Source of the DNA: Tilletia caries
Taxonomy: Eukaryota > Basidiomycota > Exobasidiomycetes > Tilletiales > Tilletiaceae
Assembly: GCA_032718865.1 (NCBI GenBank)
Contig: JALUTQ010000024.1
Coordinates: 357,501-421,500 of the forward strand
DNA length: 64,000 nucleotides
Direction of reading: 5' to 3'
The translations under genes and the position numbers were made by a program. Of this stretch, positions 4,527 to 11,915 are shown piece after piece. Numbering within the stretch: position 1 is the stretch's first letter; every line of letters begins with the position of its first letter. The notes beneath the pieces were generated by a model. The model was not told where the DNA came from. It saw only the letters and a list, made by a program, of their open reading frames with translations, and made no database searches.

Positions 4527-6121
4527 TAGCCTCAGATCCCCAGGCTGCCCTCGAGCTCGGCGTTGTGTGTTCCACCGGCGATTGACCCGAACGTTCCGTC
4601 ACACGTGACTTTTGTACGGCTCTGAATCGCCTCCGCCCGCAGGGCAGCCTGGGCTAGAAAGTGCCGATTTGCTTGTACTGTAAAAAGACTTAGCGAAATC
4701 GACGGTTCTCTCGCTCACTCACAGCTTCTCACTGGTCACCGCTCACCACTCACTACTCACTGCTTCTACTGACCGCTCCTACTGACTTTCTCACTCTCTT
4801 TCTCACCTCATCAACACAGGTCACTCTCGCCCCCCCCTCGCAGTCCGTGATTTGATATCAGCGAGCATCCATCGCGAACACAGCAGGCCGACCGGCGACC
4901 ATCTTGCCCCTCACCCACACATCTACCAACCACGCACACACACACGCACATGGCCGACAGCAGACACCACAGCGCAGCGCAACGATATCGACGTCTCCGT
5001 GAGTGTCGTGTTTTTGCTCCGTCCCTGCCCCACAGAGGATGGCTGACCCTTTGTCTCTCATACTGCACGATCGCGCATCGTCACCAAGACAGCAGTCTAC
5101 CACTGGAGCATCGAGAGCGACTCCTCAAGGTCGGCGACGTCGCCGCTCCCTACGAGCTCTTCTCCTTTGCCAACCGGACTGCCACCGGGGCCAAGCTCCA
5201 CATCGTCGAGATCGTATCTACATGAACCGTATCTCCGGTGACACCATCTTCGTCACCTCCGAGTACAAGGCCACCAGCGGCATCATCGGTCTCAACAGGA
5301 AGGGTGAAGTCCTCTCCGTCACCGCAGACGAGAACACCCTGGTCTCCTACATCCTCCGCACCCTCAACAATACAGATCTCGCTTCAAGATGGCCACTCGG
5401 GCCAGCTTGCCAGGTGCGGACGACCTCTGCCTCCAGCAGTTCCACACCCTCTTCAGCACGGGCCAGTACCTCGAGGCCGCCAAATGCGCAGCTTCCTCGC
5501 CCCGCGGCATTCTGCGCACCCCGCAAACGGTCGAGCAGTTTAAGCAGGTCCCCTCGCAGCCCGGCGCGCTCTCCTCCATCCTCCAGTACTTCAGCACCCT
5601 GCTCGAGCGAGGCAGCCTCAACAAGTTTGAGCCTCTCGAACTCGCACGGCCGGCCCTGGCACAGAACAAGAAGCAGCTGCTCGAGAAGTGGCTCAAGGAG
5701 AACAAGCTTGAGTGCTCCGAGCGCTGGCTCAGTTTCGCGCTCAGCTGTATGATATGCTCACTTGTCGCTTCTCGACTTCTCGTTACCACGTCTGCCATTC
5801 GTTTGCTTGGAAATTGGAACATCATTGCTTATACTATTGCTGTCCAGTCGAGCGTTTAAGACTGAGCTTGATCTGCTCGCTGCTGTGTGCTGACTGCTGA
5901 CTGCTGCCAGCTGAGGTGCCGTGTGAGTGAGCGAGAGAAGCGTCGATTTCACTAAGTCTTTTTACAGTACAAGCAAATGTGGAGATTTCCGCCCAGGCTG
6001 CCCTGCGGGCAGGGCGGAGCCTGATCAGCCACGAAAGTCACGTGACTTGAAGTGTGGGTGATCATCACAGGCGATCACGACACAAAGCCCGGACCGAGGG
6101 CAGCCTGGTGATCTGAGGCTA
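4527..6121. mobile_element. Non-autonomous TIR element (pack-MULE-like) carrying a clathrin fragment
   Basis: Inverted arms of about 178 bp at 4527-4704 and 5941-6121 begin TAGCCTCAGATC and match over most of their length, including internal copies of a CAGGCTGCCCT motif. The element is bounded by a perfect 9-bp direct repeat ACCTTCATC at 4518-4526 and 6122-6130, which fits Mutator-like elements (8-10 bp duplications). The 1.24-kb interior has no transposase; it holds a rearranged piece of a clathrin heavy-chain gene. Class assignment rests on duplication length and long arms only. Confidence 0.85.
5080..5721 (+). pseudogene. Clathrin heavy-chain gene fragment, internally deleted
   Basis: Three blocks match clathrin heavy chain in order. 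At 5080 a frame reads VTKTAVYHWSIES, a propeller strand. A second block reads FANRTATGAKLHIVEI. From about 5216, YMNRISGDTIFVT, IIGLNRKGEVLSV, SPRGILRTPQTVEQFK, SILQYFSTLLERGSLNKFE and KQLLEKWLKENKLECSE follow the last propeller blades and the helical linker. The blocks are joined by deletions and lie in different frames, so the piece cannot encode clathrin. Both ends of the gene are missing. It lies wholly between the inverted arms of the 4527-6121 element, so it was probably acquired by that element. The parental gene is not in this window. Confidence 0.88.
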
Positions 6122-6134
6122 ACCTTCATCACAC

Positions 6135-10609: not shown

Positions 10610-11573
10610 GTCATCCGCAAGGCTCGTGTCACCAAGCTCATTCACGAGAACGGTGCCGTCACTGGTGTTGAGTACATCGTCAACGGCCAGACCCTGAAGG
10701 AGTTCGGGTGAGTAATGCCACACGTCTATTCCCGTAGAAATCAGCATGTATGCTGACTTTTCCGCTCAACAGCCCCGTTATCCTCGCCACCGGTGGTTAC
10801 GCTGCCGACTTCGACGAGGGTGAGGGAGGTCTGCTCAAGAAGTACCGCCCCGAGCTCCTCAAGCTCTCCACCACCAACGGTGACCACTGCACTGGTGACG
10901 GTCAGAAGATGATCGCCGCCATCGGTGGCAAGCTCATCGACCTCGAGAAGGTCCAGGTCCACCCCACCGGTCTCGTTGACCCCAAGGACGTGAGTGTCAC
11001 CCAAACTCTCAGTCTCTGCTGACATGCGGTGGCAAATCTTATCTTTGCTCGCGGTCGTGCATTTCTGACAAATTTGTGATGCATTCTTTTATTCAGCCCG
11101 ACGCTAAGGTCAAGTTCTTTATCACATCATGTCCAAGGTGTGAGTACCTCGATCGAGCTCCCTCTCCCTCTCCCTCTCCCTGTGGCGTCTGCGGACGAGG
11201 GAGCAGGATCGCAGCGCCAATGCCCAACCCTAGTTGCCGACTTTACTGACTTGCTCCTTGTGCTTCCCTCCAACTCGCAGCATTGTCGTCGGTGGCGGTC
11301 TCTCCGGTCTCAGTGCCGCCCACACTCTCTACGAGCGTGGAGCCAACGTTCTTGTTCTCGACAAGATTGCGTCTTTCTCCCCTTGATTCTGGATGTTCAC
11401 TCTCTCTGACTGACAATTGTCTGCCACTTCTTTAGACCCCTTCTTCGGTGGTAACTCAACCAAGGCTACCTCTGGTATCAACGGTCAGTCTTCTTCACAT
11501 ACCTTTCACACCCCTTACTTCTGGCAGGGTTCTCACACATAAATATTCCTCGTATGCAGGTGCTGGTGGTGTG
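10610..11573 (+). pseudogene. OSM1: Fumarate reductase (OSM1/FRD) fragments in scrambled order
   Basis: Two pieces of the FAD-dependent soluble fumarate reductase are present. The first (10610-10707, 10773-10989, 11098-11118) reads RVTKLIHENGAVTGVEYIV, VILATGGYAADFDEGEGG, TTNGDHCTGDGQKM and LEKVQVHPTGLVDPKD, an internal part of the enzyme. The second, downstream, is the N terminus: ATG at 11129 (MSK), an intron, then VIVVGGGLSGLSAAHTLYER (the GxGxxG FAD site) and FFGGNSTKATSGING. So the N terminus lies 3' of the middle. The splice donor after VLVLDK reads TTGCGT where GTGCGT is expected. This cannot encode an enzyme. Confidence 0.85.
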
Positions 11574-11915
11574 TGATAGGACCTAGCTGTAATCTGTATG
11601 CTGGGGAATAGGGACTGCAATGGGCAAAAAAGGAGCGTAAATGATGGCGTAAAGAGAGCGTCTGAGCATCGTCTGATCAGTGTCTGAGAAGCGTATGAGA
11701 AGCGTATCGTAGAGCGTCCTGAGCGTGTCAGGGCAGCGTATCAGAAGCGTTCCGGCAGCGTTCTGATTGGCAGCAGCGTTCCGACAGCGCTTGGAAGTCA
11801 GCTGGCAGAGGCAAACTTTCCCACTTGAGACGCTATCGAGACGCTGTTGAGACGCTGCGTTTCAACAGCGTCTGGGAAGCGTCCAACAGCGTCCCACTTT
11901 TTCCTGAGAAGGACG

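What the first reader, a model, noticed from the sequence alone, without database searches (positions are those of the whole stretch)
4527..11908. Three adjacent non-autonomous DNA transposons carry fragments of five host genes
Seen directly: three elements with inverted ends and clean target duplications (9, 7 and 7 bp) stand in a row. Inside are pieces of clathrin heavy chain, a UPF0183-like gene, LYRM2, DID2 and OSM1, and no transposase. Introns remain, so capture was at DNA level. This is the behaviour known from plant Pack-MULEs; in fungi it is little described. A nearby insert (18409-20388) carries a malate dehydrogenase piece too, so the genome may have a general capture activity. Transcripts of such elements could make antisense or small RNA against the parent genes.
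Basis: partly seen in the sequence, partly recalled or inferred. Interest (0 to 1): 0.88.

Follow-up and report, generated by a model that had tools for sequence, protein, structure and literature searches.

The report
Fungal transposons carrying housekeeping-gene pieces
In a wheat-bunt-type fungus, several families of jumping DNA have picked up pieces of ordinary housekeeping genes and spread them to new places, something well known in plants but barely described in fungi.

Summary
Window 4527-11908 has three adjacent non-autonomous elements with exact TSDs (9, 7, 7 bp), carrying unspliced pieces of clathrin heavy chain, PHAF1/UPF0183, a LYR protein, DID2 and OSM1. Probable donors of all five lie elsewhere in the same 38.1-Mb assembly, a Tilletia bunt fungus by protein identity. 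The phenomenon is genome-wide: 22 of 23 fetched elements of the three families show a host-gene piece (17 by donor DNA or above-cut-off domain, 5 only by a domain just below cut-off). They were found by their ends, so this is not a random sample. The Pack-MULE label fits only E1 (9-bp TSD, 0.2-kb TIRs), whose transposase was not found. E2 shares its ends with a 12.5-kb element that encodes a Tnp2-type (PF02992) transposase and has a 7-bp TSD itself; E3 has similar ends. CACTA-like elements are described with 2-5-bp TSDs, so 7 bp is unusual. E2 copies are about 99.4% identical (recent spread). E3 is a near-blunt-jointed mosaic of three genes. Fungal transduplication was reported in 2013 (hAT, Tc1/Mariner); a many-gene Pack-TYPE landscape in a fungus did not turn up in my searches. 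Expression and small RNAs are untested.

The parts
4527..6121 (+). E1: non-autonomous element, 1595 bp, ends TAGCCTCAGATC, inverted terminal arms of about 200 bp (77% alike), 9-bp TSD
4518..4526 (.). E1 left TSD ACCTTCATC
6122..6130 (.). E1 right TSD ACCTTCATC; overlaps the E2 left TSD by 3 bp
5056..5721 (+). Clathrin heavy chain fragment in three blocks (5056-5124, 5124-5214, 5214-5721) from C7:679359-680416, two exonic deletions against the donor
   Evidence: 88, 96 and 96% identity
6135..8186 (+). E2: non-autonomous element, 2052 bp, ends CTCAGGAAA, 7-bp TSD; three near-full copies (C19, C3, C4) 99.4-99.5% identical
6128..6134 (.). E2 left TSD ATCACAC
8187..8193 (.). E2 right TSD ATCACAC
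6135..6541 (+). E2 left arm shared with the Tnp2-encoding 12.5-kb element at C32 (96%)
7855..8186 (+). E2 right arm shared with the Tnp2-encoding element (98%)
6552..7824 (+). PHAF1 (UPF0183) fragment; donor-like gene C40:1912648-1913922, about 82-84% identity, 30 of 38 indels not a multiple of three
8341..11908 (+). E3: non-autonomous element, 3568 bp, ends CTCAGGAAAA, subterminal 11-bp GAGACGCTGTT-type repeats, 7-bp TSD AAGGACG (8334-8340 and 11909-11915)
8606..8864 (+). LYR-motif protein (LYRM2-like) fragment; matches C36:800533-800784 and C36:1070127-1070378
   Evidence: 96.9 and 96.1%
8865..10605 (+). DID2 (Snf7 family) fragment with start codon and introns, from C3:1055481-1056417; interrupted by the MITE
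   Evidence: 96.2%
9161..9955 (.). E4: 795-bp MITE (TIR CTAAGGTTGTCCCCGGAGT, TSD TTCCAG) inserted in the DID2 cargo after capture; the donor locus is the empty site
   Evidence: 41 other places listed (275 candidates, 40 scored)
10606..11119 (+). OSM1 (fumarate reductase) block 2, C5:799814-800322, introns kept
   Evidence: 96.3-96.5%
11119..11566 (+). OSM1 block 1, C5:799070-799514, placed after block 2 (order swapped against the donor)
   Evidence: 94.9%
11574..11908 (+). E3 right arm, shared in whole or part with other E3-family elements carrying other cargo

Best explanation
E1, E2 and E3 belong to multi-copy Pack-TYPE families: cut-and-paste DNA transposons that kept their ends, lack a transposase and took up unspliced pieces of host genes. 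E2 and E3 have CTCAGGAAA ends and 7-bp TSDs. E2 is most likely moved in trans by a Tnp2-type (CACTA-like) transposase, found so far only in Tilletia and encoded by the 12.5-kb element at C32:1046592-1059047; E3 by a relative of it. E1 (9-bp TSD, long TIRs) is probably moved by a MULE-type transposase. Shown: exact TSDs at many sites, shared ends with different cargo, donor loci, retained introns, a Tnp2 gene between E2-type ends. Inferred: trans-mobilisation; the way of capture (breaks inside the element repaired by near-blunt joining of ectopic DNA, then transposition); E3's and E1's transposase class; no host function of the cargo.
For: TSDs: E1 family 6 of 8 perfect 9 bp; E2 9 of 9 and E3 6 of 6 perfect, 7 bp or more; two further CTCAGG elements (C39, C19) perfect 7 bp. 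Same ends, different interiors. Cargo-donor pairs. Cargo domains. Tnp2 ORF of 766 aa between E2-type ends, PF02992 47.3 bits against cut-off 28.6; that element has the 7-bp TSD CTGAGGA. 6 of 54 Tnp2 matches lie less than 6 kb inside a listed CTCAG end on the same strand, 5 after dropping one with a complete element in between; 0.43 expected; MULE 1 of 97, 0.76 expected. Termini 130 matches against 6 for the reversed pattern. E2 copies 99.4-99.5% identical.
Against: No movement was observed and no second strain was seen. No transposase-bearing element with E3 or E1 ends was found. Two candidate pairs gave no TSD (C30:595246-599258; C9:74791/105409), nor did E1 at C15. A 7-bp TSD is outside the 2-5 bp described for CACTA-like elements (PMC12730594, passages). 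In one search the 6-kb limit was chosen after seeing the lists, only 100 of 130 ends were listed, and the C32/C9 pair are copies, so the enrichment is rough. PHAF1 is only 82-84% like its donor-like gene, so that may not be the direct donor.
Confidence: 0.85

Rival explanations
1. All three are Pack-MULEs, moved by some of the many MULE transposases of this genome.
For: 97 PF10551 matches in the genome; E1 has 9-bp TSDs and about 200-bp TIRs; MULEs are known for host-gene capture (PMC6446971, passages).
Against: E2 and E3 family TSDs: 12 of 15 are exactly 7 bp and 3 match over 8, against 8-11 bp stated for MULEs in PMC6446971. The only MULE match less than 6 kb inside a listed CTCAG end on the same strand has its own TIRs and 9-bp TSD. 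The transposase found between E2-type ends is Tnp2.
Confidence: 0.12
2. The pieces are segmental duplications or ectopic repair patches that merely lie between repeats.
For: The three cargo-to-cargo joints in E3 are near-blunt (0, 0 and 1 nt shared), as in end joining.
Against: Exact TSDs at the element ends, and the same cargo at several sites: PHAF1 at C19, C3, C4, C28; clathrin at C19, C36, C15; proteasome piece at C32, C33, C5, C22.
Confidence: 0.03
3. The cargo has a regulatory role: transcripts of the elements make antisense or small RNA against the donor genes.
For: A possibility named for Pack-MULEs (PMC8277862 introduction, passage). Most window cargo is 94-97% like the donor.
Against: No expression data here. 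The window cargo does not look kept for coding: PHAF1 30 of 38 indels break the frame; clathrin has two exonic deletions and a 1-nt deletion. This does not test a role of RNA.
Confidence: 0.1

Closest known systems
Pack-MULEs (plants)
   Same: Non-autonomous TIR elements with intron-bearing pieces of host genes, several loci in one element, multi-copy; E1 also has the TSD length and long TIRs
   Different: Fungal host; E2 and E3 have 7-bp TSDs, and E2's relative encodes Tnp2, not MULE
Pack-CACTA (Arabidopsis, rice, maize; PMC8903248, passages)
   Same: Non-autonomous elements with gene pieces from several loci; Tnp2-class transposase in the relative (for CACTA: recalled)
   Different: Ends CTCAG rather than CACTA, TSD 7 bp rather than 3 bp, fungus
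Pack-TIRs of animals (PMC8277862, abstract and passages)
   Same: TIR elements with captured host DNA, single and multi-copy
   Different: There mostly single-copy, short (median 224 bp) and near the donor; here several multi-copy families with long coding cargo
Transduplication in Pyrenophora tritici-repentis (PMC3538342) and Pseudocercospora fijiensis (PMC6710886), passages
   Same: Fungal DNA transposons carrying a host gene, amplified
   Different: There one gene per element family (histone H3 in hAT; another ORF in a Tc1/Mariner family), 8-bp TSD in P. fijiensis; here about 13 gene families, in other element classes
Helitron gene capture in Pleurotus (PMC4289320, listing and start of abstract only)
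   Same: Gene capture in a basidiomycete
   Different: Rolling-circle elements without TIRs or TSDs (recalled)

Membership tests
Pack-TYPE (generic) | TIRs and TSD | tested here: met
Pack-TYPE (generic) | Host-gene DNA inside, donor elsewhere in the genome | tested here: met
Pack-TYPE (generic) | No own transposase | tested here: met
   No MULE or Tnp2 genome match falls in the three elements; other transposase families were not searched
Pack-MULE, E1 | TSD 8-11 bp | tested here: met
   9 bp in 6 of 8 family members
Pack-MULE, E2 and E3 | TSD 8-11 bp | tested here: not met
   12 of 15 family members exactly 7 bp; 3 match over 8
Pack-MULE, E1 | Ends shared with a MULE-encoding element | tested here: inconclusive
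   None found with the whole element or its right arm
CACTA/EnSpm, E2 | Tnp2-type transposase in the relative with the same ends | tested here: met
   PF02992, 47.3 bits, cut-off 28.6
CACTA/EnSpm, E2 and E3 | CACTA/CAC termini | tested here: not met
   CTCAGGAAA
CACTA/EnSpm, E2 and E3 | 3-bp TSD (2-5 bp in the wider CMCT group) | tested here: not met
   7 bp, the Tnp2-encoding copy included; range from PMC12730594, passages
Tnp2-moved elements, E3 | Tnp2 gene between E3-type ends | tested here: inconclusive
   Not found; only terminal similarity to E2

The most novel reading that the evidence does not exclude
Tilletia has its own branch of Tnp2 (CACTA-like) transposons with CTCAG ends and 7-bp TSDs, outside the described 2-5 bp range, and this branch works as a genome-wide exon-shuffling system. 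Fragments are joined almost bluntly and accumulate stepwise; the swapped OSM1 halves in E3 would fit capture of a circularised DNA fragment.
Probability: 0.5. Interest if true: 0.72.

Novelty: new variant of a known kind. Interest (0 to 1): 0.6.

Why it matters
If it holds, gene capture by TIR transposons, as in plant Pack-TYPE elements, also happens on a broad front in a compact 38-Mb fungal genome, and with a transposase class whose 7-bp TSD does not fit the described range. Compact genome, near-identical recent copies and surviving donors let one read how transposons capture host DNA from the joints. It also warns that gene counts in Tilletia annotations may include cargo pieces.

Tried and rejected
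MULE as partner of the CTCAG elements: the MULE at C32:1304187 lies near a CTCAGG end but has its own TIRs (GGGGCCGCC) and 9-bp TSD (CAACTAGAC), so it is nested. The ZSWIM/MULE-like gene at C7:627425 near a CTCAGT end: no exact CTCAG[G/T]AA left end in C7:623900-633300. C9:74791-105409 as a second complete Tnp2 element: the flanks share no TSD, though parts of its interior are 97-100% like the C32 one and it has a Tnp2 match. Autonomous partner of E1: not found with the whole element or the right arm. Intron loss in E1 as a sign of an RNA route: the two gaps against the donor are coding sequence. A C-to-T mutation bias in cargo: none clear; PHAF1 has 35 GC-to-AT against 20 AT-to-GC transitions, the others are near even. 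PDB sequence search of the Tnp2 ORF: one hit at E 0.91, not informative. First identification of the organism gave only Malassezia and other fungi; the longer ORF gave Tilletia.

Limits. Elements were found by their ends, so cargo rates do not apply to all transposons of the genome. Domain matches below the curated cut-off: proteasome 21.4 against 22.4, Sec1 28.5 against 30.7, Tom37 18.7 against 25.1 (same element: GST_C_6 35.2 against 28), LYR 23.5-24.5 against 24.8, Snf7 19.7 against 27.3. Donors were matched for clathrin, PHAF1, LYR, DID2, OSM1 and CSE1; for the acetyl-CoA-synthetase-like piece only partial relatives at 81-86% came up; for the proteasome, FGAR, glutamate dehydrogenase, Sec1, SAM37 and Sec23/24 pieces I did not search donors. 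T2 at C30 was not examined for cargo. One search lists 100 of its 130 matches.

Full report
What is there. The window is G000:C19:357501-421500 of a 38,104,258-base, 40-contig assembly. The leucine-biosynthesis ORF at 49221-50774 is 100% identical over 97% to a protein named for Tilletia laevis, so the host is a bunt fungus close to T. laevis and its kin; species and strain are not settled. A T. caries assembly of 38.18 Mb and 56.1% GC is reported (PMC10684912, start of abstract in the listing).

Three elements stand in a row with exact TSDs: E1 4527-6121 (9 bp), E2 6135-8186 (7 bp), E3 8341-11908 (7 bp). The right TSD of E1 and the left TSD of E2 overlap by three bases, which does not settle the order of insertion. 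Inside E3 lies a 795-bp MITE, 9161-9955, with 41 other places listed in the genome (275 candidates, 40 scored). The DID2 donor locus lacks it and so shows the empty site.

Cargo and donors. E1: clathrin heavy chain in three blocks, 88-96% to C7:679359-680416, with two exonic deletions. E2: PHAF1/UPF0183, about 82-84% to C40:1912648-1913922. E3: LYR protein 96.9% (96.1% to a second locus), DID2 96.2%, OSM1 96.3% and 94.9% in two blocks whose order is swapped against the gene. Donor loci carry the domains: a 1000-aa open frame with four clathrin families, PHAF1, FAD_binding_2 plus cytochrome b5; Snf7 and LYR score below their cut-offs. Introns of DID2 and OSM1 are retained with few changes, so capture was from DNA. 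The three cargo-to-cargo joints inside E3 share 0, 0 and 1 nt; the two joints to the arms are less sharp.

The system is genome-wide. Searches with E1, E2 and E3 return elements that share the ends but not the middle. Sample fetched: E1 family 8, E2 family 9, E3 family 6. Perfect TSDs: 6 of 8 (9 bp; the far end of the C36 element was found), 9 of 9 and 6 of 6 (12 exactly 7 bp, three E2 cases matching 8). Host-gene pieces, by donor DNA, by Pfam on one member or by identity to that member: clathrin (3 E1), proteasome beta (4 E1, domain just below cut-off), PHAF1 (4 E2), FGAR amidotransferase (2 E2), CSE1 (2 E2; donor C34:1642500-1643576, 97%), glutamate dehydrogenase (1 E2), LYR plus DID2 plus OSM1 (E3 in the window), AMP-binding, acetyl-CoA-synthetase-like (1 E3), Sec1 (1 E3, below cut-off), SAM37-like (1 E3), LYR plus Sec23/24 (2 E3). 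That is 22 of 23 elements and 13 gene families; 17 of 23 elements rest on donor DNA or an above-cut-off domain, 5 only on a below-cut-off domain. E1 at C25 has none that I recognise. Two further CTCAGG elements, C39 and C19, have perfect 7-bp TSDs; the C30 pair has none.

What moves them. The ends CTCAG[G/T]AAA-N8-[C/G]G[A/C]TGT occur 130 times with up to one mismatch against 6 for the reversed pattern. The largest E2-type element, C32:1046592-1059047 (12,456 bp, TSD CTGAGGA), shares a 402-bp left arm (96%) and a 332-bp right arm (98%) with E2 and holds a 766-aa ORF with Transposase_21/Tnp2 (PF02992, 47.3 bits). All 15 proteins listed at E <= 0.001 are from Tilletia (7,999 candidates scored). 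A following 292-aa ORF has no Pfam match; by eye it has the H-rich stretch and an E that this clade would have, and the first ORF a C(2)C motif (not tested further). Of 54 Tnp2 matches, 6 lie less than 6 kb inside a listed CTCAG end on the same strand, 5 after dropping one with a complete element in between, against 0.43 expected; for 97 MULE matches it is 1 against 0.76, a nested MULE with its own ends. The limit of 6 kb was set after seeing the lists, 100 of 130 ends were used, and some of the five are copies of each other. So the E2 partner is most likely Tnp2, not MULE. E3 is placed here by its ends and TSD only. E1 looks MULE-like by TSD and TIR; its partner is unknown.

Time order. E2 copies are 99.4-99.5% identical to one another, while PHAF1 differs by 16-18% from its donor-like gene with 30 of 38 indels not a multiple of three: old capture, or another donor, and recent spread. 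In E3, LYR shows 1 substitution over about 250 bp, DID2 19 and OSM1 24 over roughly 940 and 950. The LYR piece is shared with two other E3 elements that carry Sec23/24, so E3 may have gained DID2 and OSM1 later. This is inference.

Against my reading. No second strain was seen, no expression data were at hand, the transposases of E1 and E3 are not identified, one E1 element and two CTCAG pairs lack TSDs, and the 7-bp TSD conflicts with the 2-5 bp of described CACTA-like elements (PMC12730594, passages). The last point is what would make the family a new variant if the Tnp2 link holds.

Literature. Seen as passages: PMC8277862 (animal Pack-TIRs), PMC8903248 (plant Pack-TYPE; no word beginning 'fung' in its text), PMC6446971 (MULEs), PMC6710886 (hAT with histone H3), PMC3538342 (reported as the first fungal transduplication), PMC12730594, PMC9172201 (Tilletia genomes: transposable elements sorted into superfamilies, among them hAT, MuDR and helitron; no 'MULE', 'Mutator' or 'gene fragment' in the text). 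In the listings (12-20 rows where more papers held the terms; one search found none) I saw no report of Pack-TYPE TIR elements with many cargo genes in a fungus. The library holds open-licence papers only.

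Noticed in passing
window 17088-18381 and 45629-46923: Inverted arms of about 1.3 kb, 100% complementary, 27 kb apart, each with a methyltransferase-like ORF resembling a sterol methyltransferase (by eye). Retroelement ORFs lie between. Recent duplication or assembly effect.
   Followed up: no
window 18409-20388: Insert splitting an inverted arm (18372-18408 and 20389-20432 pair with 28843-28921). It holds a malate-dehydrogenase-like peptide and 12-bp inverted ends TCCCCTAACTTT (18409-18420, 20345-20356); a 99.4% match to 18999-20389 lies at C3:789557-790946. 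No TSD seen.
   Followed up: partly
window 31473-33616: Broken-up MULE/SWIM-type transposase ORFs (PF21056 and PF04434 above cut-off, PF10551 below)
   Followed up: partly
window 20639-21379 and 22228-25893: Phage-integrase-type recombinase (PF00589) beside a long reverse-transcriptase-like ORF region: looks like a tyrosine-recombinase retroelement (by eye)
   Followed up: no
window 35475-39929 and 40231-44253: Copia-like polyprotein ORFs (by eye)
   Followed up: no
L064 (C19:307357-312931): CTCAGG element with an inner 3.75-kb insert bounded by 305-bp direct repeats (99.7%) and a 5-bp repeat CTCAC, LTR-like, that carries pieces with PRA-PH (HIS4-like) and GTPase (NOG1-like) domains: host-gene pieces in an LTR-like element too.
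   Followed up: partly
L067 (C5:797700-801500): The OSM1 donor stretch (C5:799070) starts about 0.9 kb from the right end of an E2-family element (C5:795967-798197); its fragments sit in E3, a different family. Chance or not is open.
   Followed up: no
L071 (C1:1861760-1862302) and L072 (C7:1591263-1591639): Further partial DID2 copies at 95-97%, not examined for element ends
   Followed up: no
L068 (C32:1303150-1308150): A 2.2-kb MULE (ends GGGGCCGCC, TSD CAACTAGAC) nested beside a CTCAGG end
   Followed up: yes
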